DNA from: Deltaproteobacteria bacterium
Lineage (GTDB): Bacteria > Myxococcota_A > UBA9160 > PR03
NCBI GenBank assembly: GCA_035063765.1
Contig: JAPSFT010000002.1
Span: 62,001 to 126,000 of the forward strand
Reading direction: 5' to 3'
Length of the DNA stretch: 64,000 nucleotides
Made by a program: the position numbers and the translations under genes. Positions 8,370 to 30,558 of this stretch are shown piece by piece. Below the pieces are notes generated by a model. That model ran no database searches and was not told the origin of the DNA. It saw only the letters and a program-made list of their open reading frames with translations. Positions within the stretch are counted from its first letter, which is position 1, and each line of letters begins with the position of its first letter.

Positions 8370-8375
8370 CCGCCC

Positions 8376-8451: not shown

Positions 8452-8546
8452 CACGCCGCATGCCTCGTGACCCGCGGCCCGATCGATCGTCGAACGAGCC
8501 GGAGGGATCTCCGGGTCGGGCCGCCGGGACGCACGTCGGGTACCGG

Positions 8547-8633: not shown

Positions 8634-8677
8634 GATCCGCGCCCGAGCCGCCCGAGCGAGCGCAACCAGAGGAACGC

Positions 8678-15411: not shown

Positions 15412-15488
15412 GGGGCGGTAGTTCAATCGGTTAGAGCACCGGCCTGTCACGCCGGAAGTTGCGGGTTCGAGTCCCGTCCGCCCCGCCA
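15412..15488 (+). tRNA. tRNA-Asp (GTC); island integration site
   Basis: The 77-nt cloverleaf has acceptor stem GGGGCGG/CCGCCCC, anticodon stem CCGGC/GCCGG with loop CTGTCAC (anticodon GTC), discriminator G and encoded CCA. The 22 bp from 15462 to 15483 recur at 30537-30558, so its 3' end appears to be the attachment site of the following island. The integrase frame on the other strand ends inside it. Confidence 0.97.
15462..15483 (+). repeat. Left att core (tRNA copy), 22 bp
   Basis: The sequence from CGGGTTCGAG to CCGTCCGCCC is part of the tRNA-Asp T-arm and acceptor stem and is identical to 30537-30558. Identity stops one base on either side. Confidence 0.8.
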
Positions 15489-15532
15489 GTTTCCCTTGCC
15501 GATCGTGGGGTTTGCGAAGCCGGTTTCGCCGC

Positions 15533-15551
15533 GGATCCACAGCGGATCCAC
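15533..15551 (+). repeat. Tandem GGATCCAC pair, putative left arm-type integrase sites
   Basis: GGATCCAC at 15533-15540 and 15544-15551 is separated by AGC. The same 8-bp pair with a 3-bp spacer lies at the opposite island end. The left pair falls within the integrase 3' coding region. Confidence 0.6.
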
Positions 15552-16951
15552 ATTCGGTCGGTTCCGCGGTCGGATCACGTCCACCAGCGCTAGGTCGCCG
15601 AGCTTCGCGTAGCGCTCCGTCGACCGGCTATCCGCATGGCGCAGCATGCGCTGGATCATCTGGAGAGAGGAGCCCTGGGCCAGCCAGGCCGTGGCGCTCG
15701 AATGCTTCGTGCCCTCGTACATCCGGACCCGCACGCCCACCCGAGCGGCGGCCCGGTTCCACTCCTCGCGCAGCGCGTTGGCGATCCAGCGCCTGTCGCG
15801 GTTGCGAGCCGTCGGGTTCGGGAAGAGGGCGATGCGTTGGCGGAGCATCCCCTCCTTTGAGAGCTGGAAGAGCCGCCACTCGATCCAGCGCTGAAGCTCC
15901 TCGTCCACCGGGATCCAGGCCGCGTTGCGGCCCTTGGTGCCGTGGGTCGGCGCGTTGGCGTTAGGGCCCTTCACGGCGCGGGAGATCGTGAGACCCGGGA
16001 CGTCCTCGATGACCCGGTAGTCGGTCACGTCGGCGGCGCGAATCTCGCCGGGACGGATGCCGAGGCGCGCCGCCAGGAACGCGCCGCGACGGTCCCAGGC
16101 GATCTCCTCGAGGATCCCGCGCTGCACGCGCGCGGAGATCAGCCTCGGGGCATATTCGTCGACGGGGACCTCCGGAAAGCTCGGGATCGTGTCGATCAGC
16201 TCGCGCCGCTTGAGCCAGGTCACGAACGAGCGGAGCCCGCCCAGCACGTTGCGGCGCGTCTTGGCCGCGATCCCGCGCTTCGCGAGCCAGTGCGACCAGT
16301 CCTCGACCGCGCCGGCGCGGATCTCGTAGATGCTCTTCCCGCGCCACCAATCGAAGTGTCCGCCGGGCTTCGCCCAGCGCTCGAGCTCGCGCAGGTAGGT
16401 CGGCGAGCGCTCCCCCATGGCGGTACGCTCCCGCATGATCTCGAGCCAGCGGTCGAGCCACCGCTCGACGCGGTGCGCGCGCGACGTCTCCGGCATCAGC
16501 CGCTCGATCGCGCGCGGCGTCCAGACCCTCCGCCACCTGGACCCGGATCGACGCCAGGAAGTGCTCGGCCATCGCGCGGTCCTTGAAGCGCGTGCCGCGC
16601 GCGCTGTAGAGCTTCCCGCGCCGTCCGAAGTCGATGTACCAGCGGAGCTGGCCGTCCCTCGCGCGCCGGCAGCGGACCTTTCCGAGCCCCTCGGCCACGT
16701 CCCATCGCATACCACAGGCGCGGGCGGAAGTGTCGCCGGCCGGAAGGAGCGGTGCGCCCATGGGTCCTCCGGGCCATCCGGAGGGGGCGACGGGAAGGGG
16801 ATGGAGCAAGCGCCGTGCCGGCGGAAGCGAGCCGCGCGTGGCGTGCAGCTTCGCCGGGGCGTGGCGCAGCCGGTCGCTTGGAGGCGTGCCGGCAACCAGG
16901 CGCCGCCAACGCGCCGACGTCAGGGGCCGGCGCGCGCGCCGCGGGGCGCGA

Positions 16952-17191
16952 CTACGGCGCCTTTGCGAACAGTCGCTCGAAGAGCTCGCGCGACCGAGCC
17001 GCGCCTTCCTCGGTCAGCACTACCGACTTTGCCGTGCTCCTCGGGTTGCCGATCAGCCCGCGCTCGTGCAGCCGATTCAGTGCGTCCCAGTCGTGACTCT
17101 TCCAGGCGCGCTGCACCCCGTGCTCCTCGAAGCTCGTGAGGTAGAGGAGCGCGAGAACGGCGTCGTCGATCCGGTCGGTGTCGTGATCCAT
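16952..17191 (-). CDS. DUF6429-like small protein
   Basis: The 79-residue protein MDHDTDRIDDAVLALLYLTS, with AWKSHDWDALNRLHERGLI and KSVVLTEEGAARSRELFE, resembles the family of small bacterial proteins named DUF6429. It has a winged-helix-like pattern (helices followed by a VVLTEEG strand), but no function is established. It lies within the island between the integrase and a toxin-antitoxin pair, a common place for such accessory genes. The ATG at 17191 has GGGGA upstream. Confidence 0.7.
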   Translation of the reverse strand: MDHDTDRIDDAVLALLYLTSFEEHGVQRAWKSHDWDALNRLHERGLIGNPRSTAKSVVLTEEGAARSRELFERLFAKAP

Positions 17192-17571
17192 GCTCGATCC
17201 CCACGCGGGCAGCGCCCGTCTTGGCGCAGCCAGCCTACCTCAACCGTGCCGCGCCCTTGCTACGGAGCGTCAGTGGAGCGCCCGTCCGTGTGCAGGCGAG
17301 CTGCCGGCGGACCGCCGCTCCGGTGTACGCACCGCAGCTTCACGGCACGCGCGCCGGCGAGTCGACGGCGGATTGGCGGCGACTCCGGTGCAGCAGCGGC
17401 GACACGGCGGCAGCGATGCGAGGAGGGATCAGGCATCCACCAACATGCGACAGCAGGACAAAGAGCGGTCCACTTCTCCAGGACCGCCCGCCGGTGCTCG
17501 GCATTTCGTGGCCCATCCTGCGGCTTGTGGGCCAAAGGTGGGCCACGCCAACTCCGCCTCGGCGCGGTCAG
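17192..17571. other. Gene-free stretch within the island
   Basis: No reading frame with recognisable homology, no tRNA and no strong hairpin is seen here. It separates the DUF6429-like gene from the toxin-antitoxin pair, both leftward. Confidence 0.5.
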
Positions 17572-17862
17572 CTAAGGGTCGAAGACTCGCGGTCGTCGGC
17601 GGCCGTGGTACACCGCCAGCACGTCGATCCGGTCCTCCCTCACGACGTAGAAGACGCCGTACGGGAAGCGCCGGAGCGCGGCTCGCCGGACCTGGCCCTG
17701 CACCTGAGGGTACGCCTCGGCATGCCGGGCAATGCGCACGAAGCACGCCGTGACGGAGCGCAGGAAAGCCTCTCCGAGCCCGGGCACCTGCGCCTCGTAC
17801 CAGCCGAACGCCTCGTCGAGATCGGCCTCGGCCCGCGACCGGACCGTCAGCGGGCGCGTCAC
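17572..17862 (-). CDS. RelE/ParE-type toxin
   Basis: The 96-residue protein has the fold signature of RelE/ParE toxins: EADLDEAFGWYEAQVPGLGE at the N-terminus, RRFPYGVFYVVREDRIDVLA in the centre and VYHGRRRPRVF at the end. RelE members cleave mRNA on the ribosome, while ParE members poison gyrase; sequence alone does not decide which. The GTG start overlaps the stop of the antitoxin gene (GTGA), typical of a coupled toxin-antitoxin operon. A decayed relative occurs at 28254-28570. Confidence 0.88.
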   Translation of the reverse strand: MTRPLTVRSRAEADLDEAFGWYEAQVPGLGEAFLRSVTACFVRIARHAEAYPQVQGQVRRAALRRFPYGVFYVVREDRIDVLAVYHGRRRPRVFDP

Positions 17863-18092
17863 CTCGGACGTTGCCGAATGCGCTCCAGCACCTCTTCCCA
17901 GGGCGCTCCACCTGCCGGGTCCGCGTCCGCCTCGGCCAGCCTCCGCTCCAGGTCCTCGCGCTGCTCGGCGGTCAGGGAGAGGGGCTCGCGCTCGCACTCG
18001 GCGGCGATGCTGTCCCAGAGCTCTTCCACGAGCTCCAGTCGCTCGACCAGCGTGAGCTTGAGGAGTTCCTCTTGGAGGGCGGCCTTGGTCAT
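17859..18092 (-). CDS. Addiction-module antitoxin component
   Basis: A 77-residue acidic helical protein (MTKAALQEELLKLTLVERLE then LVEELWDSIAAE and LTAEQREDLERRLAEADADP, ending PWEEVLERI) that matches the putative addiction-module component family found upstream of RelE/ParE toxins. It precedes the toxin with a 4-bp overlap. It is expected to bind and neutralise the toxin and to repress the operon. ATG 18092 is used; an upstream in-frame TTG at 18128 would add 12 residues. Confidence 0.85.
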   Translation of the reverse strand: MTKAALQEELLKLTLVERLELVEELWDSIAAECEREPLSLTAEQREDLERRLAEADADPAGGAPWEEVLERIRQRPR

Positions 18093-18439
18093 GTCGAGGA
18101 GGGTGCCGCCGGGCCCGAGGAGCGGCAAGCCCAGCGTCGCTTCGCCGGCGCCGGGACGGCAGGTTCTGGCAGCGCTTTGGATGGATCAACGGCAACGGGA
18201 ATGCAGCACCTCGGAAGCGCGGCGGGGCGCGCCGGCGCGGCTCGAGTGCGTGGTCGGTTGGCGAGCAGAGGACCGAAGAGGTGCGAGCTGTGATGCATCA
18301 CCCGCGACAGCAAGATAAGGGGCGGAGGAATTCCTGGAAATCGCCGCGCCTCTTCAGGAATTCGAGGGAGTACCCACGTCGTGGCGGAGGAATCCTCCGC
18401 CCAGGATGCGGCGCTGCTGGCGGGCGTGGGCGCGTCCGA
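18093..18439. other. Intergenic stretch between antitoxin and secreted-protein gene
   Basis: Apart from the palindrome at 18383-18401, I see nothing of recognisable function. The promoter of the toxin-antitoxin operon should lie in its left part, but no convincing -35/-10 pair stands out. Confidence 0.4.
18383..18401 (-). terminator. Palindrome GGCGGAGG-AAT-CCTCCGCC
   Basis: A perfect 8-bp stem with a 3-base loop, about 40 bp beyond the stop codon of the leftward secreted-protein gene. It is a plausible terminator, without a T-tract. Confidence 0.4.
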
Positions 18440-18754
18440 TCAGAGCTCGACCGTCCCGCTTTCTTCACAGCGCGCCTCGACCGGCGGGCTCCAGGCGCCG
18501 CGCGCCGCGTCCCACTCCTCGTAGCGGAGCTCCTCGCTGGCGACGCAGACGGGGGCGGTCTGCCCGGGTGTCAGCGTGCCCTCGAAGATCCAGGTGGCGC
18601 ATGGTTCGGCGGCAGCCGGGTCGCAGGCGCGGATCTGGGCGACGGCCGGATCGGAATCGATCTTCCAGAGCTCGCAGCAGGCGGCGCCGGCCGAAGACGG
18701 AGCGAGGCTGGCGAGCCAGCCGGCCCCGAGCAGTGTCGAGAGCGTGCGCTGCAT
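18440..18754 (-). CDS. Small secreted hypothetical protein
   Basis: The 104-residue product starts with a signal peptide (MQRTLSTLLGAGWLASLAPS, cleavage likely after SAGA). The mature part is short, acidic and rich in cysteine: CCELWKID, IRACDPAAAEPCATW, PVCVASEEL and VEARCEESG give seven cysteines if both N-terminal ones remain, so disulfide bonds are likely. I recognise no family. It is divergent from the giant secreted protein gene with a 111-bp gap, so shared control is possible. Confidence 0.6.
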   Translation of the reverse strand: MQRTLSTLLGAGWLASLAPSSAGAACCELWKIDSDPAVAQIRACDPAAAEPCATWIFEGTLTPGQTAPVCVASEELRYEEWDAARGAWSPPVEARCEESGTVEL

Positions 18755-18865
18755 TGCACGCGCATCGTACGCGCCGAGCGCGGCTTGCTGCAACAGCTCT
18801 CCCGTTCCTTGGCGAAAATTTGGATCAGTCGAGCGCCCCCCGATTCGTGGTAGGGTGCGCGCGGC

Positions 18866-19207
18866 ATGGGCCCGAGATGCGCTCCTGTGTTGCGCCGGAT
18901 GAGAATGCTGCGTCGGATGGGAAGCCGGTCGGCAGCCCCGTCGTGGCTCGCACTCCTGCTGTTCGGAGCTGTCGCTCCAGCGAGCGCCGCAACCTTCTCT
19001 TTCGAAGCGAGCACGCCAATCGCGGGCGACTCGGTGCCCGTCACGGTCACGCTGGCGGACGCGCCGGAAGGCGACGCTGTCGACGTTTCGGTGTCGATCC
19101 CGGCGGGAGCCGGTGATCTCTTGGGGCTCTTCGGCAATGTGTCGCCCGAGAGCCTGGCTGGCGCTCTCGCGGTGGCGGATGCCACGGGCGTCGTGACCCA
19201 GTGGTAG
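18866..19207 (+). CDS. N-terminal piece of giant secreted protein, cut by in-frame TAG
   Basis: Reads as 113 residues with a signal peptide (hydrophobic WLALLLFGAVAPASA, cleavage before TFSFEAST), followed by a beta-rich domain (SVPVTVTLADAPEGDAVDVS). It stops at TAG 19205-19207. The same frame continues directly after the stop (AAPNQVWKVGGGNVMSPV) into the long coding region at 19232, and the domain clearly spans the stop. I therefore take this as the 5' end of one gene carrying a nonsense codon. An in-frame ATG at 18899 would give a more usual signal peptide. Confidence 0.7.
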   Translation: MGPRCAPVLRRMRMLRRMGSRSAAPSWLALLLFGAVAPASAATFSFEASTPIAGDSVPVTVTLADAPEGDAVDVSVSIPAGAGDLLGLFGNVSPESLAGALAVADATGVVTQW

Positions 19208-19231
19208 GCCGCACCGAACCAGGTCTGGAAG

Positions 19232-22200
19232 GTGGGCGGCGGCAACGTGATGTCGCCGGTCAAGACCTGGGACTGGGGCGCGCGCTTCGGACAGGCGGGG
19301 AGCGGCGGCGGGGCGATCGAGGCCGCCTCGTTTCGCCTCACGGCGCCGGGTCTCACGGCCGCGAGCCTCGCCGACGCCACCACCCAGGGCTGGCGCCTCG
19401 GCGTGCGGATCCAGGGGACGAGCGGCCCGGAGGGGTCGGCGAAGATCGGCATCGCCGCGAGCCAGCCGCCCGCGGGCCAGGCGCCCACAGTCGCGATCGC
19501 GGCGCCGACCGACGGGGCGCTTCTCGCCGCCAGCGAGGTTCCGGTCTCGGGCAGCTTCACGGGCACGGCACCGGTGGCCGTAGCCGTCAACGGCATCGCC
19601 GCCACGCTCTCTGGCCCGAGCTTTGGCGTCACCCTGGCCCTTCTCGACGGCGCCCACACGCTCACCGCCTCGGCGACGAACGCCTCCGGCAGCGCGAGCG
19701 ACGCGGTTGCGATCACGGTCGACACGACGCCGCCCGTCGTCACGATCACGAGCCCGCCAGATGGGACGCTCACAGCAGCCGCGACGGTGACCGTCACGGG
19801 GACGGTCGTGGACGCGGGCCTGATCACGAGCTTCACGCTGAACGGGGTCGCCGCTCCCCTTGCCAACGGGGCCTTCGCCGCCGAGGTTCCGCTCGAGATG
19901 GGCGGAAACCCCATCTCAGCCGTGGCGACTGACGCCGCCGGCCACAGCGGGTCGGACGCGACCTCGGTCGAGCGCGGCGCTCCGCCAACCATCTCGATCA
20001 CAGCTCCTCCCTCAGGGTTCACGACGGCCGAGGCCGAGATCGTCGTGACGGGGCAGGTCAGCGGGAGTGAGCCCCTGACGGTCGTTGTGGGATCCGTGCC
20101 AGCCTCGGTCGCGGCCGGGACTTTCTCCGCGACGGTTCCCCTCTCCGTCGGAACCAACACGATCGCCGCGACGGCCTCGAACACCTTCGGCACGGCCAGC
20201 GCATCCGTCGCGGGCACTCGGACGGAGGCCGCACCGCCGCTCTCGATCACGATCGATTCGCCGCCGAGCGGTGCGCTCGTCTCCTCTCCCTTGGTTGCCG
20301 TGGCGGGTTGGGTGAGCGACGGAGCCGCCGCGGTCGCTGTCGGCGGTGCGACCGCGATCGTGACTGGGAATCGGTACGTGGCGCCGGGCGTCGCACTCGT
20401 CGAGGGCGAGAACACGCTCGTCGCAGTCGCAACGCGCGGTGCGGATTCGGCGCAGGCGGAGACGGTCGTCACGTACAACGCGCCGCCTCGTGTGGTCATC
20501 ACGACGCCTGCGGACGGCAGCGTGGTTCGCTTCCCGCAGACCGACGTCGAGGGCTTCGTCGACGATCCAGCGGCCCTTGTGGACGTGAATGGGCGCGTTG
20601 CCGCCGTGGGGCATGCCGGACGCTTCGTCGCGCGCGACGTCCCGCTCGACCTGGGTTCCAATCTGCTCACGGCGCGCGCCATCGACGTCTACGGAGCGGG
20701 TGGAGAGGACACGGCGCGGGTCACGCGCGAGGATGGCGCCGCAGGAGTCGTCCGGCTGGTGTTCGTTCGGGAGGAGAGATACCCCTTCCTCGGCGATGGC
20801 GAGCCGATCCCTCTCATCGCAGAGACTGTCGAGCAGTTCGGAGAGACGCTCGGCTTCCTCGGGTTCCCACCGGAAGAGTTCACGCCTGCGATAGACCGGA
20901 TCCAGCATACCTATGGCGACGGACACGTATTCGCATTCACGGAGGATCCCGGCTCTCTCACGGTCTTCCAGAACGACGAGCAGGTCGACGACCAGATTCT
21001 GCTGGAGCCGATCGAGCTGCTGCCTGACGACTTCGTCTTCCAGTTCGGCCAGCTCGATCCGACGTTGATCCCGGACATCCTGCCCGTCGGCTTCGACGCA
21101 CGGTACTACGCCGAGCTCGACTTCTCGTTCGAACCGGAGACCATGCCTACCCCCGGTGAGGTCGTGGTGCGAGTCGAAACCGACACGGGCGCCGTGGGCG
21201 CCTTGCCGATCCGCATCGAGACCGGCCTTCCCGCCGTCGAGATCGCCAAGCCCGTCTCCGGGTCGGTCGTTCGCGCCAATGCGGTCACGATCTCCGGCAC
21301 TGCGTCGGATGACGTACACCTGTTCGGTCGAGCCCGCTACTTCCTTTTCAACGACGAGATCGGCGTGATCGGCTCGGGCTCGGTCCCGGTCGTGAACGGA
21401 CGGTTCGTGCTGAGCGATCTCGCCGTCGACGAAGGGCGACAGTGCGTCACGGTGACCGCGCTCGACGCGGCCGGCAACAGCGAAGGGGATCTCACCTGCT
21501 TCACGGTCGACACGAGCGGACGACTGGTCTCACTCGCGTCGCTGCGCGATGGGCAGACCGTCGTGGGCTCGACGCTCGCCGTGAGCCTCGATTTTGCGGT
21601 CCCGCTCACCCTCGTCTCGGTGAACGGAGTCGCGGATGGCCGGGCCTTCGCTGCGGGCCTCGCCGAGCAGGCGATCTCCGTCTCGCTGGCGCCAGGCCCG
21701 AACGTCATAACGCTCGTCGTCGACGACGGGAATGGTCCCAGCAGCTTCGAGTTCGCGCTCTTTCGGCTCGGGTCGCCCGAAGCGATCCGGATCACGAGCC
21801 CAGGCGACGGCGCCGTGCGCAACACGCCGAGCGTGCCGGTCACGGTGCAGGCGCCGCTCGGTACGAGCCACGTCCAGGTCAACGGCGTCGCGGCGACGCC
21901 GCAGCCGGACGGGGTCAGCTTCGTCGCGAGCGTACCGCTGCGGTCCGGCCCGAACCGCATCGAGGCGATCGCGGCGCCGTACGGCCAGACGGCAGCGATC
22001 ACGGTCGAAGGCGACTTCCAGCCGCCCTCCCTGCACTTCGTCCTGCCGCCCGACGGGGCGCGGACGGTCGCCGATTCGTCGGACCTCGTCGGCTTCGTCG
22101 ACGAGCCGGTCTCGGTCGAGCTGGAGGGGCCGGGCGGGAGACGCCGCGGCACGGCCGTCTTCGACGGCTCGCTCAGCGACGTGCTGCTCCGCTCCTTCGT

Positions 22201-25200
22201 CTACCGGTTCGATCTTCCGAGCTTCCCGCTTGCAGAGGGTGTCAACCCGCTGACCCTCCGGCTCCGAGACAGGGCGGGGAACGAGACGACGGAGACCTTC
22301 ACGCTCGAGCGGGCCCTCTCAGCGGTGTCGCTCGTTACTCCCGTCGACGGGGCATCGCTTCCCGAGTCGCGAACTACGATCCATTTGGAGGCTCTCACCG
22401 ACGTGACCATCGATGCCTGGTACGCCGGCGGGCGCCGGCTCGCCGCCTTCGATGGTGTCGGCTTCGGCCCTGGGAGCGCGACCTTCACCGACGTTCCCCT
22501 TGTACCCGGCAGCAACGAGATGCGGATCGCCTACCACGGCCCGGACGGAGCAGCACAGGTCTTGCTCTTCGAGTTGCACTCGACGGCCTCCGCCGGCGCT
22601 GTGGTCACGGGTGTCGTGGAGGATCTGCGTACGGGAGCGCCGGTCGCCGGCGCGCTCGTCCGAGTCTCGGTCAGCGGCATCACGCTCATCGTCGCCACGG
22701 ACGCCGAAGGCCGGTATCGAGCCGAGGTCGAGGCTGGAGACATCGAGATCACGGTCGAACGGGAGGGGTTCCGTGCCGCCACCGCGACAATCGCTGCTCA
22801 AGGCGTGACGAGCCTCGACTTCGCACTCGTTCCCTGGAGGACTTCGAGCGAGGATCTCCCGGGCACGGGGCCGGGCATCGCGACCAGCCGCGTGGAAGGC
22901 GTCGTCACGGACGGGACCTCGGGATCGGCGCTTGCCGGGGTCGCTGTGACGGTTTCGTCGGGCACGACGGAGTTCGTCACCGCGACCGATCTCGACGGCG
23001 CCTACGTCGTGGAGGCGATCCCGGCCGGTCCCTTCACCGTGGCGTTCGAACGCGCGGGCTATCTGCCACAGTTGTTCGAGGTGCCCTTCGATGCCCCGGT
23101 CGACTGGACTCTCGACGCGGCACTCGAGGTGGGGGCCGGCGGTGGGCTCGCAAGCAGCAGCCTGAGCGGCCGGGTCTTCGACGAGGACACGGGCGCAGGC
23201 CTCGGCGGGGCGGCGATCACGGTGGACAGCGGCGGCACGATCCTGACGACGACCTCGGAGCCGAGCGGGAAGTACCTCGTGGAGGCGATCCCGCCGGGCC
23301 CCTTCTCGGTCACCGTGGCGCTGGACGCCTTCGTCACGCGCAGCTTCGAGGTTCCCTTCGAGGAGGCCGCTCCGATCGAGGTCGACGTGCCGCTCGTGGC
23401 GTCCGGCGTATCGGGCGGTGCCGCGGCGAGCGTCGTGCGCGGCACGATCCGGGACGAAGCCACGGGAGCGGCCCTTGCCGGCGCGCTCGTCACGGTGACC
23501 GCGACGGGCGCCACGCTCGCGGCCACGACCGACGCCACCGGCGCGTTCGCCGTGCGGGGCATACCGATCGGCGCCTTCACGATCACCGTGGGCCGGGATG
23601 GCTACGTCCCGCGCGTCTTCGACGCGCCCTACGAGATTGCGGTCGTCCTGCCCCTCGATGCCACGCTCTCGCCGCTCGGGACCACGGTGACCGTCGTCGG
23701 AACGGTTCGCAGCGGCCTCACGGGCCAGCTCGAGCCGGGAGTCACTGTGCGCCTGCTCGGCACCTCGCGCACGGCGACGAGCGACGGCGCGGGCCGCTTC
23801 ACGCTCATGGACGTTCCGCTGGGCACGGCGCAGAGCCTCGTCCTCGCAAAGCCGACCTTCCTCGAGGAGTTCGTGACGTTCACCGCGACGCAGGGGGCTG
23901 CGGGCCACCCCGTGCAGCTCGACCTCACCTATCCCGTCGTGCAGAGCTCGGAACGCTCGCTGACGATCGGAACAGAGGCCGAGGGCACCGTCGTGGACGC
24001 CCTGACCGGCCGCCCGCTGGCCGGTGCGGAGCTGCAGGCGGGGAGCGCGACTACAGTCGCGGACGCCGACGGTCGATTCATCCTCGAGGGCCTTCCGCCC
24101 GAGACAGTGGTGCGCGTGACCGCGACTGCCTCCGACCACGAGGCCCAGGGTTTCGACGCGCTCGTCGTCGCAAACGGCGATGACCCGCTCGACTTCCGCT
24201 TGGCTCCGACGCTCCTCGGCGAGGTGGCGGGCACCGTGACGGATGCCGCGACCGGGGAGCCGGTAGCGTACGCGGAGGTGGGGATCGAGGGCAGCACGTT
24301 CCTCTCGGCCGTGACCGACGGCGACGGGACCTATCGGCTGCTCGCCGTGCCCGCCGGCGCGCACACGATCGTGGCAACCAGCCCCGAGCACTTCCCGCAG
24401 GCGAGCACGGGCTTCTCCGTGAGCGCTGGGGCCACCGCGACCTTCGACGCGGTGCTCCCGCCGCGCCCGAAGGTGGGTGGCCTCGCTGGCCACGTGCTCG
24501 ACGCCGCGACGAGCGCGCCGATCGCGGGGGCCGTCCTCACTCTCGCCGACGGGCGCAGCGAGACCTCCACGTCCGACGGCAGCTACGCATTCGCCGGTGT
24601 CGCCTCGGGCCTGGCGCGGCTCACGATCGAGGCCGCCGGTTACCCGGCGGCGAGCCGGGTTGCGCCCGTCGATGCGGATGTGGATGCCGCAACGCCCACC
24701 GTCACGACCTTCGACTTCCGCCTGGATGCGAGCACGGCTTTCGATCCGAGCGAGGCCAGCGGCCTCATCGAAGCCGCAGAGGGCGGCTCGATCGAGACGC
24801 CCGACGGCCGCATGCGGCTCGACATCCCACCGGGCAGCCTCACGGGCGACGGCGTCATCACGATCCGCCAGTCTCCGGCGCCCGTGGCCGGTCCGGGCGA
24901 GGCGCTGGTCTCGGACCCCGCGCTCGGCCTCCCGCCGGTGACCGCGCTCGCGGACGAGATCGAGATCCTGATCGGTGCGCCACCGGGCGGCGGCGACAAG
25001 CCGCTCCTTGCCGGGCCCGTCTACGTGGTGGCGCGCTACTTCGAGGACTTCGCCGCGGGCGCGAGCGCCGCGGAGGCGAGCGCCTTCCCCTATCTGCACA
25101 CCGGCTCGGACTGGACGGCGCTGCGCATGGTGCCGTACCTGCACGCGGTCGATCGCATCAACAACGTCATCGTTACGGCGTTGATCTTCGAAGAGACGGA

Positions 25201-26848
25201 GACGGGGCGGGACGTCGTGGCGTACCAGACGACGCGGCGGCCGGTGCTGCTCGCGCAGGCCGGTGGCGACCTCGGCGGCATCGTGGTCGATGCGTTTCGC
25301 CTGATCGTCAGCAGCGTAGCCCGGTCGCTGTCGTTCGACCCGGCCGTGGCAGTCGTCGATCTGAGCAACCGCCCTCCCTTCAACGAACAGCAGCCCAGCG
25401 CTCCGTTCTATGCCATCAACACCCACTCGCGGCCACTTCTCGTGACGCACGGGTGGGATCCACTCGCGATCCTGCGCGACGCCTCGCTCATCATGGACCC
25501 CATGGGCCCTGACGGGGCGCGCTATGGGCAGATCGTGAGCGACCTTGTGGAGAGCACGAACGCGATCTATCGCCCGATCTGGCTCACCTACAACTCGCGG
25601 CTCGGCATCGACAAGAACGGACAACGGCTCGTCCGCGCCCTGCGCGAGCAGTTTCCGGAGGGCACGCCCGAAGAGCCGCTCGTCACCGATGCATTCGCAC
25701 CGCCGGGTGCATTCACCAACCCCAAGGCCTTCCGGACCTTCGATTCCTACGGCTTCAGCATGGGCGGCCTCATGAACCGGAGCTTCCAGCTGGGTTCCTA
25801 CTATTCCGATCCACCCATCAGTATTCCCGGCGACAGCGGCCGCCGAGGCCGCATCCAGCGGATGATCGCGATGGGGTCACCCCATCACGGCGCACTCCAG
25901 GTGCTGCGGCTCGCGGTCTCGGTGGCGTCGTCGGTTGCCTACAGGCTTCCGATCGAGACGCTCCTGAACATCTGGTCGCCTGGTACGGCCGATCTGCTGG
26001 ACTACGTCGACGACGATGCCGTGCCGTGCGCGCTCTCTGGCAACCCGACGCTTTGCGCGCTGAACAACGACCGCCGCAGCAGCCCACACGTGGTGGCGTC
26101 ACTCATCGCCGGTACGAAGTCCACCAGACGCCTCGCAGACGGCATTGATCTCGATCTCGGGTATCTCGTCGATCCCTTCCAGAAGAGCGACAGTGTGGTG
26201 CCGGTCTCCAGTGCCCATGGTGAGAGCACCTTCGATCGACGAGTGGTGCCCGCCCTGACCCGTCGGCGCACCAGCGAGCAAGTGTTCGACCACTTCCGGG
26301 CCGGCACCGATGCGACCGCGCAGGGGGAGGGCAACCAGCGGATCACGGCCTTCGTGGGGGAGGACATCCTGCCTGTGCTGCAGGACCACTGGGTGGTTCG
26401 GGAAACCGGCCTGGTCGAGAACCAGCCTCTGGCGCCTGGGGTCCGGATTGTCGACTGCCCCACGCTGACTCAGCGCGGGTTGATCGAGGCCGACTTCTTC
26501 TTCGACTACAAGGCGGCTAACGGCGGCTTGACTGGCATCGCGTTGGTTTCTTACGCCGAGGACCAGAATGGTTCCTGGCAGATCATCTCCGGAGCGGACC
26601 CATCTAGTCTTGAACTCTATTCGACCACGCTCCTCCCTGTCGACGGGAACTCCCGAGGCAAGGATCGTGAAGAGGGAAGACTTAGGTTCGCGGAGCGACC
26701 CGCGGCGGGGATCGACGCACGCCGGGTTCTCACCCTTGTTGCCACGACCGGTACACTCAGCTCGACCGAGGGACGAGCGCAAGCGGCTCCCACCGCCGCG
26801 CAGGTCGAACAGCTTGATGAACTTCAGCGGATCCATACGTGTCCATAG
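19232..26848 (+). CDS. Giant multi-domain surface protein: Ig-like, carboxypeptidase-regulatory repeats, lipase-like domain
   Basis: This 2538-codon frame continues that of 18866-19207; a repaired protein would be about 2660 residues. Residues 85-1110 hold repeated Ig-like domains with the pattern PPVVTITSPPDGTLTAAATV. Residues 1120-1840 contain about eight carboxypeptidase-regulatory-like repeats (GVVTDGTSGSALAGVAVTV, then DLDGAYVVEAIPAGPFTV). Around 1848 a ZU5-like segment (GGSIETPDGRMRLDIPPGSL) follows. The C-terminus is an alpha/beta-hydrolase: LLVTHGWDP, nucleophile elbow YGFSMGGLMN, MGSPHHG, and candidate acid and histidine in SDSVVPVSSAHG and FDHFRAG. A secreted adhesive lipase or acyltransferase is likely; the substrate is unknown. 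The 3' end overlaps the kelch gene. Confidence 0.75.
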   Translation: MGGGNVMSPVKTWDWGARFGQAGSGGGAIEAASFRLTAPGLTAASLADATTQGWRLGVRIQGTSGPEGSAKIGIAASQPPAGQAPTVAIAAPTDGALLAASEVPVSGSFTGTAPVAVAVNGIAATLSGPSFGVTLALLDGAHTLTASATNASGSASDAVAITVDTTPPVVTITSPPDGTLTAAATVTVTGTVVDAGLITSFTLNGVAAPLANGAFAAEVPLEMGGNPISAVATDAAGHSGSDATSVERGAPPTISITAPPSGFTTAEAEIVVTGQVSGSEPLTVVVGSVPASVAAGTFSATVPLSVGTNTIAATASNTFGTASASVAGTRTEAAPPLSITIDSPPSGALVSSPLVAVAGWVSDGAAAVAVGGATAIVTGNRYVAPGVALVEGENTLVAVATRGADSAQAETVVTYNAPPRVVITTPADGSVVRFPQTDVEGFVDDPAALVDVNGRVAAVGHAGRFVARDVPLDLGSNLLTARAIDVYGAGGEDTARVTREDGAAGVVRLVFVREERYPFLGDGEPIPLIAETVEQFGETLGFLGFPPEEFTPAIDRIQHTYGDGHVFAFTEDPGSLTVFQNDEQVDDQILLEPIELLPDDFVFQFGQLDPTLIPDILPVGFDARYYAELDFSFEPETMPTPGEVVVRVETDTGAVGALPIRIETGLPAVEIAKPVSGSVVRANAVTISGTASDDVHLFGRARYFLFNDEIGVIGSGSVPVVNGRFVLSDLAVDEGRQCVTVTALDAAGNSEGDLTCFTVDTSGRLVSLASLRDGQTVVGSTLAVSLDFAVPLTLVSVNGVADGRAFAAGLAEQAISVSLAPGPNVITLVVDDGNGPSSFEFALFRLGSPEAIRITSPGDGAVRNTPSVPVTVQAPLGTSHVQVNGVAATPQPDGVSFVASVPLRSGPNRIEAIAAPYGQTAAITVEGDFQPPSLHFVLPPDGARTVADSSDLVGFVDEPVSVELEGPGGRRRGTAVFDGSLSDVLLRSFVYRFDLPSFPLAEGVNPLTLRLRDRAGNETTETFTLERALSAVSLVTPVDGASLPESRTTIHLEALTDVTIDAWYAGGRRLAAFDGVGFGPGSATFTDVPLVPGSNEMRIAYHGPDGAAQVLLFELHSTASAGAVVTGVVEDLRTGAPVAGALVRVSVSGITLIVATDAEGRYRAEVEAGDIEITVEREGFRAATATIAAQGVTSLDFALVPWRTSSEDLPGTGPGIATSRVEGVVTDGTSGSALAGVAVTVSSGTTEFVTATDLDGAYVVEAIPAGPFTVAFERAGYLPQLFEVPFDAPVDWTLDAALEVGAGGGLASSSLSGRVFDEDTGAGLGGAAITVDSGGTILTTTSEPSGKYLVEAIPPGPFSVTVALDAFVTRSFEVPFEEAAPIEVDVPLVASGVSGGAAASVVRGTIRDEATGAALAGALVTVTATGATLAATTDATGAFAVRGIPIGAFTITVGRDGYVPRVFDAPYEIAVVLPLDATLSPLGTTVTVVGTVRSGLTGQLEPGVTVRLLGTSRTATSDGAGRFTLMDVPLGTAQSLVLAKPTFLEEFVTFTATQGAAGHPVQLDLTYPVVQSSERSLTIGTEAEGTVVDALTGRPLAGAELQAGSATTVADADGRFILEGLPPETVVRVTATASDHEAQGFDALVVANGDDPLDFRLAPTLLGEVAGTVTDAATGEPVAYAEVGIEGSTFLSAVTDGDGTYRLLAVPAGAHTIVATSPEHFPQASTGFSVSAGATATFDAVLPPRPKVGGLAGHVLDAATSAPIAGAVLTLADGRSETSTSDGSYAFAGVASGLARLTIEAAGYPAASRVAPVDADVDAATPTVTTFDFRLDASTAFDPSEASGLIEAAEGGSIETPDGRMRLDIPPGSLTGDGVITIRQSPAPVAGPGEALVSDPALGLPPVTALADEIEILIGAPPGGGDKPLLAGPVYVVARYFEDFAAGASAAEASAFPYLHTGSDWTALRMVPYLHAVDRINNVIVTALIFEETETGRDVVAYQTTRRPVLLAQAGGDLGGIVVDAFRLIVSSVARSLSFDPAVAVVDLSNRPPFNEQQPSAPFYAINTHSRPLLVTHGWDPLAILRDASLIMDPMGPDGARYGQIVSDLVESTNAIYRPIWLTYNSRLGIDKNGQRLVRALREQFPEGTPEEPLVTDAFAPPGAFTNPKAFRTFDSYGFSMGGLMNRSFQLGSYYSDPPISIPGDSGRRGRIQRMIAMGSPHHGALQVLRLAVSVASSVAYRLPIETLLNIWSPGTADLLDYVDDDAVPCALSGNPTLCALNNDRRSSPHVVASLIAGTKSTRRLADGIDLDLGYLVDPFQKSDSVVPVSSAHGESTFDRRVVPALTRRRTSEQVFDHFRAGTDATAQGEGNQRITAFVGEDILPVLQDHWVVRETGLVENQPLAPGVRIVDCPTLTQRGLIEADFFFDYKAANGGLTGIALVSYAEDQNGSWQIISGADPSSLELYSTTLLPVDGNSRGKDREEGRLRFAERPAAGIDARRVLTLVATTGTLSSTEGRAQAAPTAAQVEQLDELQRIHTCP
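26510..26599 (+). repeat. 90-bp segment duplicated at 28122-28211 (copy 1)
   Basis: Encodes AANGGLTGIALVSYAEDQNG within the giant protein. The copy downstream of the kelch gene differs at a handful of positions and by one missing base. Confidence 0.8.
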
Positions 26849-28110
26849 TGCTGCTCCTGATCTTGTACTTCGGGTCCTTGGAAGCCCACGCCTCGGCTTC
26901 CAGTGACCTTTGGCAAACTCTCTCGCCAATGCCCGAACCCCGACGCTTTCATCTCGCCGGTGTTGGGCTCGACGGGCGACTCTACGTCTACGGCGGCACT
27001 GTGACGGGGGCGGATGGCGAGGATCGACACGGGCTCGCGGGCACTTCTCTGGTCATCTACGACCCGGAGCGCGAGAGTTGGATTCGGGGCCCAGCACTGC
27101 CCAAGCCGGAATTCAAGACCCTGGGGCAGGTTCGCCATGGATGGTTCGACGAGCAAGGTCGTAGACACGAAGAGATTTCTCTCGAGGAAGTGACTTCAAC
27201 GACTGATCTTTCCCATGAGGTTCCAATGGGTCGAGCAGATCCATTGGGGCGGCCGCGGTGGCCGGGCGGATGGCTCTGGGTCCCATTCGAACCCAGGAAG
27301 GGATCTTGGGGTCCGCCCGACGTTGCGCTCAAGACGCCCAGCAAGAAGCCGGGGGTCCCAGCGTGGGAGTGGCCATGGAAGACGAGCGGGCCGAGCTGGT
27401 CCCGTCATACCCCCACGCTTGCAACGTCTCCTCGCGGCACCGTCTACATCACTGGAGGCCTCGCCAGACCCTACCGGAGGGCTTCCGCCCGCCCCCGTGT
27501 ACATGAGTCCGTTGAGATCTGGAATGCTCGTGACAACTCGTGGCGGGAGCTCTCGCCTATGCGGGAGGCCCGCTTTCTTCATGCAGCTGCGATCGATCGA
27601 AGCGGCCGGCTCTTCGTCTTCGGGGGCTCTGCAGCCGATCCGAGCACGATGCAGGAGAAGGGAGAATCGGCCGAATCGTTTCGCCGGCGCGCCGATGAGA
27701 ACGCCACCGCGGCGAACGCTTCCCTAGCCTCCGTCGAGATGTATGACCCCAAGACCAACACCTGGAGCGCGCGGGCGTCGCTTCCCACGCCGCGCCAGGC
27801 CATGGGCGCCGACCTCGGCGCCGACGGGCGGATCTACGTGGTCGGCGGGGCCCCCTCCTATGCGCACCCGCGTCCGATGGCCGTGGTCGAGATCTACGAC
27901 CCCGTGACCGATACCTGGGAGACCGGGCCCTCGATGAACTACGCGCGGCGTGGCCACGCGGTCGTGGCGACGCCGGACGGCAAGATCTACGCCATCGGGG
28001 GCTTCGTGGGCCGGAGGCAGCGCACTCTACGCGAGCAGCTCGCGGGGGACTTCGTGGATCCGGCGCTCGGGGCGACCGTCGAGGTATTGGACACGAGCAA
28101 GGCGAGATGA
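26839..28110 (+). CDS. Secreted kelch-repeat protein
   Basis: A 423-residue protein with a signal peptide (MSIVLLLILYFGSLEAHASA) and kelch motifs: GRLYVYGGT, GTVYITGGLAR, GRLFVFGGSA, GRIYVVGGAPS and GKIYAIGGFVG, each followed by a Trp-containing segment such as NSWRELSPM, NTWSARASLP or DTWETGPSM. These form a beta-propeller used for protein or glycan binding. The GTG start overlaps the giant gene by 10 bp, so the two are probably translated together. The first half has less GC-rich codons than the chromosome around the island. Confidence 0.85.
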   Translation: MSIVLLLILYFGSLEAHASASSDLWQTLSPMPEPRRFHLAGVGLDGRLYVYGGTVTGADGEDRHGLAGTSLVIYDPERESWIRGPALPKPEFKTLGQVRHGWFDEQGRRHEEISLEEVTSTTDLSHEVPMGRADPLGRPRWPGGWLWVPFEPRKGSWGPPDVALKTPSKKPGVPAWEWPWKTSGPSWSRHTPTLATSPRGTVYITGGLARPYRRASARPRVHESVEIWNARDNSWRELSPMREARFLHAAAIDRSGRLFVFGGSAADPSTMQEKGESAESFRRRADENATAANASLASVEMYDPKTNTWSARASLPTPRQAMGADLGADGRIYVVGGAPSYAHPRPMAVVEIYDPVTDTWETGPSMNYARRGHAVVATPDGKIYAIGGFVGRRQRTLREQLAGDFVDPALGATVEVLDTSKAR

Positions 28111-28121
28111 CCAACGCCTAG

Positions 28122-28211
28122 AAGGCGGGCAACGGCGGTTGACTGGCATCGCGTTGGTGTCATACGCCGAGGACCAGAATGGTTTCTGGCCGATCATCTC
28201 CGGAGCGGATC
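28122..28211 (+). repeat. 90-bp segment duplicated from 26510-26599 (copy 2)
   Basis: Lies just after the kelch stop codon and encodes TGIALVSYAEDQNG in a frame broken by one missing base. It runs into the remnant of a toxin gene. Confidence 0.8.
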
Positions 28212-28253
28212 AAGGGGCCTGGATCCGCACCGGATCCCCATTTCGCCGCGTCC

Positions 28254-28570
28254 GCCAGCCCGTCGATCCGATCCTCCCTCACGACGTAGAAGACGCCGCA
28301 GGGGAAGCGCTGGAGCGAGGCTCGCCGCACCCGCCTCTGCACTTCGGGGTGCGCTTCGGGATGCCGCGCCATGCGCGCGAAGCACGCCCTCGCGGAGCGC
28401 AAGAACGCCTCCCCGAGGCCAGGTCGCTGCGCCTCGTACCAGCCGAAGGCCTCGTCGAGATCGACCTCGGCGCGCGGTCGGACCGCCAGCGGGAACGGCT
28501 CGCGCTCACACCCGGCAGCGATGCGGTCCCGGAGTTCCTCCACGAGCTCCAGCCGCTCGCTGGGGGCGCG
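28254..28570 (-). pseudogene. Decayed toxin-antitoxin module (antitoxin-toxin fusion remnant)
   Basis: Leftward translation gives SERLELVEELRDRIAAGCER, matching the antitoxin at 17859-18092. It continues in the same frame as AVRPRAEVDLDEAFGWYEAQ and FPCGVFYVVREDRIDGLA, matching the toxin at 17572-17862. An internal deletion has joined the two genes, removing the antitoxin C-terminus and the toxin start. The toxin's last 15 residues are replaced by unrelated sequence near 28254. Not expected to be functional. Confidence 0.8.
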
Positions 28571-28646
28571 GAAGGCTCGGACGTGTGTCGCGCGCTTCCG
28601 TTCGCGTGGGGGCTACGTGAAAAAGCGTTCGTTGCGCAGGTTTCTC

Positions 28647-28675
28647 TTGCCCCCCAGGGGGGGTAGGGGTATAAG
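28647..28675 (+). promoter_or_regulatory. Predicted promoter of the PEP-CTERM/FGE-fold gene
   Basis: TTGCCC at 28647 and TATAAG at 28670 with a 17-bp spacer, 52 bp upstream of the start codon. TATAAG is the best -10 box in the island. A G-rich block (CAGGGGGGGTAGGGG) fills the spacer. Confidence 0.55.
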
Positions 28676-28726
28676 CACACCGCTCGGCCGCGCTCCCGCG
28701 GCCGCTCCTGGGAAGGGGACTGGCAG

Positions 28727-29707
28727 ATGCGGCCTCGTGTGTCGTTCTTGCGCTCGCTCTTCGTGCTGGCTGGCGTGGCGCTCCTCGCGACTCCGGCCTC
28801 GGCGGTGACGATCGACTGGGTGACGGTGGGGGATCCGGGCAATGCCGCGGACACCGCCACGAACTGTTACGCAGCCAATTGCGGCTCGGTCGCGTACTCG
28901 TACCAGATTTCGAAGTACGAGGTCACCAATGCGCAGTATGCGGAGTTCCTGAACGCGAAGGCCGCGTCGGATCCGCTGGCGCTCTACAGCACCGCCATGG
29001 CGGGGACCTATGGCGGCATCACCCGGAGCGGCTCCCCGGGCAGCTACACGTACGCGGTGAAGCCCGGCTTCGCGGACAAGCCGGTGAACTGGGTGTCGTT
29101 CTACGACAGCCTGCGCTTCACGAACTGGCTGAACAACGGCCAGGGGAGCGCGGACACGGAGACCGGCGCGTACACGCTCCTCGGCGGGACGCCGGTGCCG
29201 AGCAATGGCCTCACCGTGACGCGCAACCTGGGCGCGAACATCTTCCTGCCGAGCGAGAACGAGTGGTACAAGGCAGCGTACTACGACGGGCTCTCGGCGA
29301 CGTACTTCGACTACCCGGCCGGGACGAACACGCAGACGGTGTGCGCGGCGCCCGGGGCGACGCCGAACACCGCGAACTGTTACTACGCCATTGCCAACGT
29401 GACGGACGTGGGCGCCTACACGGGCTCGGCGAGCCCGTACGGGACGTTCGACCAGGGTGGGAACGTCTGGGAGTGGAACGAGCAGATCGTGAGCGGCTCG
29501 GACCGGGGCATCCGGGGCGGGGGCTGGAGCGTCGACGCCGGCAACCTCGCCGCGTCGTCCCCGAACCACGCCAGCCCGCCCCTCGGGAGCGGCAGCCTCG
29601 GGTTTCGTGTCGCGAGTCTCGTTCCCGAGCCCGGGACGAGCCTGCTCGTGATGATCGGACTCGCGGGACTGGCCGCGCGGCAGGAGCGCCGCAAGCGGAC
29701 CCTCTGA
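28727..29707 (+). CDS. FGE-sulfatase-fold (SUMF1-like) protein with PEP-CTERM signal; candidate DGR target
   Basis: The 326-residue exported protein has a signal peptide (FLRSLFVLAGVALLATPASA), then an FGE-sulfatase domain: YQISKYEVTNAQYAEFLNA, DKPVNWVSFYDSLRFTNWLN, LPSENEWYKAAYYDG and GTFDQGGNVWEWNEQ. It ends in VPEPGTSLLVMIGLAGLAAR plus a basic tail, an exosortase sorting signal. The fold is a C-type-lectin relative that many diversity-generating retroelements diversify; residues 260-297 (RGIRGGGW to GFRVAS) look like such a variable region. A binding role outside the cell is more likely than formylglycine synthesis. It is followed by a hairpin and an Avd-like fragment. Confidence 0.85.
   Translation: MRPRVSFLRSLFVLAGVALLATPASAVTIDWVTVGDPGNAADTATNCYAANCGSVAYSYQISKYEVTNAQYAEFLNAKAASDPLALYSTAMAGTYGGITRSGSPGSYTYAVKPGFADKPVNWVSFYDSLRFTNWLNNGQGSADTETGAYTLLGGTPVPSNGLTVTRNLGANIFLPSENEWYKAAYYDGLSATYFDYPAGTNTQTVCAAPGATPNTANCYYAIANVTDVGAYTGSASPYGTFDQGGNVWEWNEQIVSGSDRGIRGGGWSVDAGNLAASSPNHASPPLGSGSLGFRVASLVPEPGTSLLVMIGLAGLAARQERRKRTL
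29504..29617 (+). other. Putative DGR variable region (VR)
   Basis: Encodes RGIRGGGW, a stretch of small polar residues, then LGFRVAS. Between Trp267 and GFRVAS many codons end in C (AGC GTC GAC, AAC, TCC, AAC CAC GCC AGC, AGC GGC AGC). That is what adenine-directed mutagenesis of AAC codons in a template would give, although the high GC content also favours C-ending codons. No template repeat is seen in the window. Confidence 0.55.
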
Positions 29708-29732
29708 TCTCTGGGCCTTGGACCCTTGTCCG

Positions 29733-29760
29733 GGGCCGCGCGGCCATAGCCGCGCGGCCC
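29733..29760 (+). other. Strong 11-bp hairpin after the FGE-fold gene
   Basis: GGGCCGCGCGG-type arms (GGCCGCGCGG/CCGCGCGGCC plus one more G-C pair) flank a 6-base loop CCATAG, 25 bp after the stop. It could be a terminator, or the hairpin that some DGRs need downstream of the variable region. Confidence 0.5.
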
Positions 29761-29782
29761 GCGCCTCGGGGGGAGCGCGCAC

Positions 29783-29878
29783 ATGGCTCGCGCCAGCGAT
29801 CCGCCGGTGCTGCTCGTCAAGTGGTACGACCTCGCGAAGTGGCTGCTCGAGCGGGTCGAGCAGTTCCCGATCTGCTGA
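29783..29878 (+). pseudogene. Truncated Avd-like (DGR accessory) gene, N-terminal 31 codons
   Basis: ATG 29783, preceded by GGGGGGAG, reads MARASDPPVLLVKWYDLAKW then LLERVEQFPIC and a TGA. This resembles the first helix of Avd-like four-helix-bundle proteins that accompany diversity-generating retroelements, which normally run to about 110-120 residues. The rest is absent; the hicA remnant follows 45 bp later. Its position right after an FGE-fold variable-protein gene is the usual DGR order. Identification rests on recall of the family, not on an alignment. Confidence 0.6.
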
Positions 29879-29922
29879 AGGGCCAGCGGCCGATGCCGCG
29901 CGGGGGGCGGCGGCGGGCTCGG

Positions 29923-30170
29923 TCAGCGCTGCGCGAAGAGCTGTTCCGCGATCGCTTCGCGCGTCGTGCCGGCGTGCCGGGCGACCTCGGCGAGGACGGC
30001 GGCCAGGGTGCCCACGCGCAGCGTGTCGTGGTTCGGGATGGTGAGGTGGTGCTCGCCACCCGTGTGCGTGGTGAGGCGGAGGGGACTCCCGTCTGTCGCG
30101 TGACCTCGTAGCCGAGGCGCCGTAGCGAGCGGGCGAGGGCCGGGCCCGAGAGGTCCCGGGGCAGCCTCAT
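29923..30170 (-). pseudogene. hicA: HicA-type toxin, frameshifted
   Basis: Starts at ATG 30170 with MRLPRDLSGPALARSLRRLG YEVTRQTG-like sequence, then loses one base near 30087-30091. In the shifted frame it continues SPLRLTTHTGGEHHLTIPNH and DTLRVGTLAAVLAEVARHAG to a stop at 29923. HicA toxins are small dsRBD-like mRNA interferases whose key His lies in the segment lost by the frameshift. Corrected length would be 82 residues, normal for the family. The ATGA overlap with hicB is kept. Confidence 0.82.
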
Positions 30171-30373
30171 GCCGGGAGCACTTCCTCGCGGACGAAGTGC
30201 AGGCGGATCAGGGCGGGTGCAGTGGCCTCCTCGAAGTGACACCGCACGGCATCGCGAACCCGCTCGTGCAGCGCCTCCAGCGTGTCCGCTTCCGTGAAGA
30301 TGGCGGCGCCGAGCGCCCGCGCGGTGAAGCCGCCCTCGGGCGCCTCCTCGACGAGGAAGAGGATCTCGTTCAT
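30167..30373 (-). CDS. hicB: HicB-like antitoxin
   Basis: The 68-residue protein MNEILFLVEEAPEGGFTARA, with AIFTEADTLEALHERVRDAV and IRLHFVREEVLPA, matches short HicB-type antitoxins with a partial RNase H-like fold and without a long DNA-binding tail. It lies upstream of hicA with a 4-bp overlap. With the toxin frameshifted, the antitoxin would have no active partner here. Confidence 0.8.
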   Translation of the reverse strand: MNEILFLVEEAPEGGFTARALGAAIFTEADTLEALHERVRDAVRCHFEEATAPALIRLHFVREEVLPA

Positions 30374-30473
30374 GGTGGCCGGGAAGATAGCTCGATCCCG
30401 CGCACGCTCGCGCCTTCCTTCGGCAGTCTGCGGACGGCGGCTCCAGGCGCCGGGTCGCGCAGCCGGAGCGGCT

Positions 30474-30492
30474 GGATCCACACGGGATCCAC
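30474..30492 (+). repeat. Tandem GGATCCAC pair, putative right arm-type integrase sites
   Basis: GGATCCAC at 30474-30481 and 30485-30492 is separated by ACG, mirroring the pair at 15533-15551. It ends 44 bp before the right core. Confidence 0.6.
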
Positions 30493-30536
30493 GACGCGCC
30501 GTGACGAAACCCCAGCGATGCTTCGCCGTCATCCTC

Positions 30537-30558
30537 CGGGTTCGAGTCCCGTCCGCCC
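30537..30558 (+). repeat. Right att core, displaced tRNA-Asp 3' end
   Basis: Identical over 22 bp to 15462-15483 in tRNA-Asp. No tRNA structure surrounds it, so it is a displaced fragment and not a second tRNA gene. Confidence 0.8.

What the first reader, a model, noticed from the sequence alone, without database searches (positions are those of the whole stretch)
18866..26848. Giant secreted protein ending in an alpha/beta-hydrolase domain
About 2660 residues when joined: signal peptide, unknown N-terminal domain, Ig-like repeats, about eight carboxypeptidase-regulatory repeats, a ZU5-like segment and a lipase-like domain with GFSMGG. I know of no described protein with this exact layout. 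It may be a cell-surface adhesin that presents a lipase or acyltransferase.
Basis: partly seen in the sequence, partly recalled or inferred. Interest (0 to 1): 0.7.

Follow-up and report, generated by a model that had tools for sequence, protein, structure and literature searches.

The report
Giant secreted repeat protein with lipase
This is a 2,660-codon bacterial gene for a secreted, beam-like protein ending in a lipase-type enzyme; it lies on what looks like a mobile genomic island, joins two parts that a sister species encodes as separate genes, and is interrupted by a stop codon near its start in this assembly.

Summary
18866-26848 encodes a signal peptide, an N-terminal domain, glucodextranase-B/Big Ig-like repeats, eight CarboxypepD_reg repeats, a ZU5-like segment and a divergent PGAP1-like alpha/beta-hydrolase with Ser-Asp-His. 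An in-frame TAG (19205-19207) splits it; the relative has a sense codon there. AlphaFold gave no usable model from two sequences, so the hydrolase call rests on profile-profile homology (probability 98.6-98.7%, E about 1e-15; controls at most 1.1%), aligned Ser and Asp, and a His at identical spacing.

New here: (1) the 'unknown' N-terminal domain is a type found alone in PEP-CTERM proteins. (2) N-terminal domain plus Ig array is a swappable module: fused to a teneurin/Rhs-like protein in another family of the order, and a separate upstream gene in the sister species, whose lipase gene has its own signal peptide. (3) The gene lies on a ~15-kb island between tRNA-Asp and an exact 22-bp copy of its 3' end, beside an integrase, at lower GC (0.695 against 0.74). 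(4) A secreted Kelch gene overlaps its end.

The lipase was found only in this genus. No surface anchor was found, so 'adhesin' is unproven. Best reading: a lineage-restricted exo-lipase on a long beta-domain stalk, possibly recently inactivated here.

The parts
18866..19204 (+). signal peptide (start at 18866 or one of the ATGs at 18899/18905) and first part of N-terminal domain
   Evidence: 74% identical to L007 over 70 codons, dN/dS 0.13
19205..19207 (+). in-frame TAG stop codon; sense codon in relative L007
19208..19480 (+). rest of N-terminal domain (type found in PEP-CTERM proteins)
19481..20743 (+). first Ig-like array (Glucodextran_B / Big_7)
   Evidence: boundaries by eye
20744..21226 (+). 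uncharacterised, poorly conserved segment; region where L007 has the gene A stop and gene B start
21227..22600 (+). second Ig-like array; start of the part that is a separate gene in L007
22601..24742 (+). eight CarboxypepD_reg (transthyretin-like) repeats
   Evidence: 66% identical to L007, dN/dS 0.27
24743..25282 (+). ZU5-like segment, 77% identical to L007
25283..26413 (+). PGAP1-like alpha/beta-hydrolase domain
25757..25759 (+). predicted nucleophile Ser2176 (GFSMGG)
26189..26191 (+). predicted acid Asp2320 (SDSVVP)
26291..26293 (+). predicted His2354 (FDH), 28 residues from SAxG as in the relative in L022
   Evidence: assigned by spacing
26414..26848 (+). C-terminal tail and stop; conserved with L007 up to about 26535, beyond which L007's contig ends
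26839..28110 (+). Kelch-repeat secreted protein, overlapping the end of the giant gene by 10 bases
15412..15488 (+). tRNA-Asp, probable insertion site of the island
15447..16895 (-). tyrosine integrase (frame; true start uncertain)
   Evidence: Phage_integrase E 5.9e-7
15462..15483 (+). left copy of 22-bp attachment-like repeat (3' part of tRNA-Asp)
30537..30558 (+). right copy of the 22-bp repeat, exact, outside any tRNA
18440..18754 (-). small secreted-looking protein gene, the only upstream neighbour conserved in L007

Best explanation
A Sec-exported modular exo-enzyme. A signal peptide directs export (inferred from sequence). An N-terminal domain of the kind found in PEP-CTERM proteins, two arrays of glucodextranase-B-like Ig domains and eight transthyretin-like CarboxypepD_reg repeats form a long beta-rich stalk (inferred). 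The stalk carries a ZU5-like domain and a C-terminal PGAP1-like serine hydrolase (Ser2176, Asp2320, His2354 of the 2,538-aa ORF; homology shown, triad predicted) that most likely cleaves ester bonds of lipids outside the cytoplasm (inferred). A secreted Kelch propeller encoded by an overlapping downstream gene is probably its partner (inferred). The unit rides on an island inserted at tRNA-Asp. Here the N-terminal module and the lipase, separate genes in the sister species, form one frame; whether this is a fusion here or a split there is not settled. A stop codon near the start separates the signal peptide from the rest, so in this assembly the protein is either recently inactivated or misread at one base.
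For: Domains. Hydrolase homology: profile of window plus L007 (A2) against five bacterial PGAP1-like hydrolases, probability 98.7, E 4e-16; repeated at 98.6, with reversed, column-shuffled and ZU5-part controls at 1.1 or below. Two of those relatives were scanned and hit PF07819, and their profile hits solved lipases such as 1cvl. GFSMGG and SDSVVP align with them; the distance from SAxG to the His is 28 residues in both. All three residues are conserved in L007. Purifying selection: dN/dS 0.31 hydrolase, 0.21 ZU5-like, 0.13 before the stop. N-terminal domain in short PEP-CTERM proteins. Same N-module on a teneurin-like protein in another family. Two-gene state with a second signal peptide in L007. 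Island: tRNA-Asp, integrase, 22-bp repeat, GC 0.695 against 0.74. Kelch neighbour with overlapping frames.
Against: Neither AlphaFold run gave a usable model (mean pLDDT 30 and 31), so the fold is not shown directly. The His is assigned by spacing only; the profile alignment ends before it. The stop codon, and an independent frame break in L007's copy in the same domain, leave open that the N-terminal part is decaying. The route across the outer membrane is unknown. Activity is untested.
Confidence: 0.7

Rival explanations
1. Pseudogene: the gene was functional but is now inactivated in this lineage, since the TAG cuts off the signal peptide and the remaining ORF has none.
For: In-frame TAG inside a conserved stretch; L007's copy has its own frame break in the same domain; lipase and toxin-antitoxin remnants nearby and on contig C27 show decay in this neighbourhood.
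Against: Only one stop in 2,660 codons; dN/dS well below 1 on both sides of it. A single base in a metagenome-type assembly may be an error or a strain variant. In L007 the lipase gene is separate, open and has its own signal peptide.
Confidence: 0.35
2. Surface adhesin that displays a lipase.
For: Ig-like and CarboxypepD_reg arrays are common in adhesins and stalks; size; the N-module is shared with a bacterial teneurin-like protein, a class in which N-terminal adhesion domains are described (PMC13018210).
Against: No anchor found in the Pfam scans and none visible at the C-terminus; Sec/SPI-type rather than lipoprotein signal by eye; no ligand known.
Confidence: 0.2
3. Polymorphic-toxin-like effector: the N-terminal module delivers exchangeable payloads, here a lipase attacking membranes of neighbours.
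For: Same N-module on a teneurin/Rhs-like protein in G008; island location; PGAP1-like domains are reported in type VI lipase effectors (literature search).
Against: No recognisable immunity gene (the neighbour is a Kelch protein); no VgrG, PAAR or Hcp domain; the junction is not a sharp constant/variable boundary, since Ig and CarboxypepD_reg repeats intervene.
Confidence: 0.15
4. Nutritional exo-lipase or esterase: scavenges lipids or polyesters, the stalk only holding the enzyme away from the cell or binding substrate.
For: Profile relatives hit solved triacylglycerol lipases; Ig and CarboxypepD_reg repeats are frequent accessory parts of secreted hydrolases (general knowledge); Kelch propeller next door may bind substrate.
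Against: Length of the stalk is far beyond usual exo-lipases; substrate unknown.
Confidence: 0.4

Closest known systems
PGAP1-like alpha/beta-hydrolases (PF07819) and the related bacterial triacylglycerol lipases (e.g. PDB 1cvl)
   Same: HG near the first strand, YNSxLxI..NG motif, GxSMGG, G(S/T)PHHG, (S/G)D.VVP and a His at the same spacing; profile probability 98.7
   Different: No direct Pfam match; inserted loops; sits at the end of a giant exported repeat protein instead of a stand-alone enzyme
Bacterial teneurin-like / Rhs proteins (G008:C283, L086)
   Same: N-terminal domain and Glucodextran_B array, 45% identical over about 600 residues; transthyretin-like domain next
   Different: G008 continues into NHL and YD-shell; the window protein has none of these and ends in a hydrolase
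PEP-CTERM proteins with the same N-terminal domain (G013, G011)
   Same: Homologous domain of about 120 residues after a signal peptide
   Different: Those are 220-280-residue-frame proteins with a VPEP C-terminal sorting tag; the window protein lacks the tag
L007 / G001 two-gene version (CAADGG010000040.1)
   Same: Same domains in the same order, 47-77% identical by domain
   Different: N-module and lipase protein are separate, overlapping genes, the second with its own signal peptide

Membership tests
PGAP1-like alpha/beta-hydrolase | match to PF07819 itself | tested here: not met
   no family at E up to 10 for the domain
PGAP1-like alpha/beta-hydrolase | profile homology to proteins that match PF07819 | tested here: met
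   hhalign 98.7%, E 4e-16; controls at most 1.1%
PGAP1-like alpha/beta-hydrolase | GxSxG nucleophile, Asp, His in order | tested here: met
   Ser and Asp aligned, His by identical spacing, all conserved in L007
PGAP1-like alpha/beta-hydrolase | alpha/beta-hydrolase fold with triad geometry | tested here: inconclusive
   two AlphaFold runs, pLDDT about 30
PGAP1-like alpha/beta-hydrolase | ester hydrolysis | not testable with these tools
   needs an enzyme assay
Surface adhesin | cell-surface anchor (sorting tag, lipobox, autotransporter, S-layer domain) | tested here: not met
   no such domain in Pfam or NCBIfam scans at accepted scores; a weak S-layer hit in NCBIfam is repeat-driven, 111 bits against a cut-off of 1400
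Surface adhesin | binding to cells or surfaces | not testable with these tools
   needs an experiment
Bacterial teneurin-like protein | FN-plug, NHL and YD-shell superfold | tested here: not met
   absent from the window protein, present in G008
Type VI lipase effector | VgrG, PAAR or Hcp fusion or adjacency and no signal peptide | tested here: not met
   no such domain in the protein; signal peptide present; a genome-wide T6SS search was not made
tRNA-integrated genomic island | integrase beside tRNA, direct repeat of tRNA 3' end at the far side, different base composition | tested here: met

The most novel reading that the evidence does not exclude
A lineage-specific, polymorphic-toxin-like exoprotein scheme in which one exported N-terminal module (PEP-CTERM-type domain plus Ig array) is combined with alternative C-terminal payloads: a teneurin/Rhs shell in one family and a stalk-borne PGAP1-like lipase in another, the lipase form being carried by an integrative island.
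Probability: 0.15. Interest if true: 0.65.

Novelty: new variant of a known kind. Interest (0 to 1): 0.42.

Why it matters
Each domain is of a known kind, but the combination was found only in one genus, and it ties together three testable things: a lipase at the end of a very long exported stalk, an N-terminal module shared with a bacterial teneurin-like protein (a class described as polymorphic toxins, PMC13018210), and carriage on a tRNA-Asp island. If the shared module is a delivery platform, it would show how one export module is reused with different enzymatic or toxic ends.

Tried and rejected
Structure prediction: two runs (594 and 350 aa, two sequences each) gave pLDDT about 30 and were not used for fold searches. 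Viral collections: none; one distant PGAP1-like protein (L070); patterns none. Plasmids: none. Direct Pfam, NCBIfam and PDB sequence searches of the hydrolase: none. Reassignment of TAG as a sense codon: not favoured, because the giant gene itself ends in TAG; not tested genome-wide. T6SS lipase effector: rejected for lack of any VgrG, PAAR or Hcp domain and presence of a signal peptide. Other large frames with PGAP1 matches in related genomes were read; L062 is a secreted PEP-CTERM-like hydrolase of a different layout. A dispersed mobile repeat at the 3' end was considered: the 96-bp repeat occurs only twice, locally. Literature searches found no protein of this layout; the library is open-access only. 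In one search two pieces (N-domain, CPD) were in a wrong frame for one sequence and were redone; only the redone values are used.

Full report
What is there. The frame that opens at 18866 on the + strand reads a signal peptide and part of a domain, meets TAG at 19205-19207, and then runs without a stop to TAG at 26846-26848. From GTG 19232 the open part is 2,538 residues; joined, 2,660 codons. Residue numbers below are those of the 2,538-residue ORF. Pfam finds eight CarboxypepD_reg stretches (E 1.9e-84) and seven Glucodextran_B stretches (E 4.8e-52), with Big_7. The C-terminal 720 residues have no Pfam, NCBIfam or plasmid match, and the C-terminal hydrolase part (520 residues) has no PDB match.

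The hydrolase. One clear relative was found, in a genome of the same genus (L007, contig CAADGG010000040.1; 65% identity over 617 residues). A profile of the two hydrolase domains searched in 377 genomes of the phylum gave weak hits, clustered on the GxSxG region, in stand-alone bacterial hydrolases (per-genome E 3e-4 to 9e-3). Two of these, scanned in Pfam, are PGAP1-like. A profile of five of them compared with the window profile gave probability 98.7 and E 4e-16. My own rerun gave 98.6; reversed and column-shuffled versions of the same profile and the neighbouring ZU5-like part gave 1.1 or less. The five-protein profile hits solved lipases such as 1cvl and 1hqd. Aligned motifs: TYNSRLGI..NG, GFSMGG, GSPHHG, SDSVVP. 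The candidate His (FDH, residue 2354) stands 28 residues after SAxG, as in the relative in L022. Ser2176, Asp2320 and His2354 are at 25757, 26189 and 26291 and are all conserved in L007.

The ZU5-like segment. The C-terminal profile matches, over this segment only, four proteins elsewhere in the phylum (best E 2.3e-6); one of them is ZU5 above Pfam's cut-off and another just below it. It is the best conserved part (77% identity, dN/dS 0.21).

The N-terminal domain. It occurs in other genomes of the order, there in short proteins with a signal peptide and a VPEP-type PEP-CTERM tail (L087, L088). In G008, from another family of the order, the same domain and Ig array (45% identity over about 600 residues) begin a 2,607-codon uninterrupted frame that continues into a transthyretin-like domain, NHL and YD-shell: a bacterial teneurin-like protein. 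Such proteins are described as surface-exposed polymorphic toxins with variable N-terminal adhesion domains (PMC13018210). So the front half of the window protein is a module reused with a different back half.

Two genes in the sister species. In L007 the N-module gene ends in a TGA that overlaps an ATG; the second gene starts with a clear signal peptide (MSCPPPEIRCLRALLLVALALVGPPQVRA) and encodes the second Ig array, the eight CarboxypepD_reg repeats and the hydrolase. In the window both parts are one frame. Which state came first is not settled. L007's N-module gene also has a frame break in the N-terminal domain, about 25 codons past the position of the window's TAG.

The stop codon. The relative has a sense codon at the TAG position inside an otherwise alignable stretch. 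dN/dS is 0.13 before it and about 0.35 after it. I infer either a sequence error or strain variant, or a recent inactivation; the tools cannot decide. TAG also ends this gene, so it is unlikely to be a sense codon here.

Surroundings. A secreted Kelch-repeat protein gene overlaps the end of the giant gene (26839-28110). In G001 the contig with the lipase breaks off inside the gene, and another contig begins inside a close Kelch relative (69% identity over its last 39 residues), which suggests, but does not prove, the same order there. Contig C27 of the window's own genome has three Kelch genes, one truncated, and a fragment of the hydrolase between two of them. I read this as traces of duplicated lipase-Kelch pairs.

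The island. tRNA-Asp lies at 15412-15488. A tyrosine integrase frame abuts it. The 22 bases CGGGTTCGAGTCCCGTCCGCCC of its 3' part recur exactly and in direct orientation at 30537-30558, where there is no tRNA. GC is 0.695 between the copies against 0.745 and 0.742 outside. The giant gene is therefore cargo of a roughly 15-kb integrated element. Consistent with this, only one upstream neighbour (18440-18754) is shared with G001.

Distribution. The hydrolase profile or protein was found only in this genus among 60 near relatives, 79 genomes of the order and 377 of the phylum. In the phylum searches only a few candidates per genome were scored, so distant copies may have been missed.

How it most likely works. 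Exported by Sec, extended by two Ig arrays and a transthyretin-like array, and ending in a lipase-type serine hydrolase that acts outside the cytoplasm. Shown: domains, homology, purifying selection, two-gene relative, island signs. Inferred: stalk shape, lipid substrate, partnership with Kelch. Unknown: export through the outer membrane, surface retention. The adhesin idea has no support beyond the domain types. The toxin-like idea is kept as the most novel open reading.

Noticed in passing
15412-30558: Apparent integrative island: tRNA-Asp, abutting tyrosine integrase, exact 22-bp direct repeat of the tRNA 3' part at 30537-30558, lower GC than the flanks.
   Followed up: partly
17572-18128 (-) and 28252-28559: A ParE-type toxin with an Unstab_antitox antitoxin upstream of the giant gene, and a second, decayed copy (85% and 79% identical stretches) about 10.5 kb away on the other side.
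   Followed up: partly
26503-26598 and 28115-28209: A 96-bp direct repeat (91%) formed by the 3' part of the giant gene and a copy just after the Kelch gene; it occurs nowhere else in the genome.
   Followed up: partly
L077 (G000:C27:25000-38000), about 6100-9620: Three Kelch genes, the last truncated, with a fragment of the hydrolase (76% identical over 42 residues) between two of them: a decayed duplicate of the lipase-Kelch pair.
   Followed up: partly
L076 (G001:C33:1-6000): Contig starts inside a Kelch relative, followed by a PpiC-type peptidyl-prolyl isomerase lipoprotein gene (Rotamase_2), a short frame resembling the giant protein's C-terminal tail, and a second Kelch gene.
   Followed up: partly
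L086 (G008:C283): Bacterial teneurin-like protein of 2,607 codons sharing the N-terminal module with the window protein.
   Followed up: partly
28727-29707 (+): FGE-sulfatase (formylglycine-generating-like) domain protein with a PEP-CTERM tail, also inside the island.
   Followed up: no
L062 (G028:C1:347000-354500): Another large secreted PGAP1-like hydrolase, 1,121-residue frame ending in a PEP-CTERM-like tail, in the same order.
   Followed up: no
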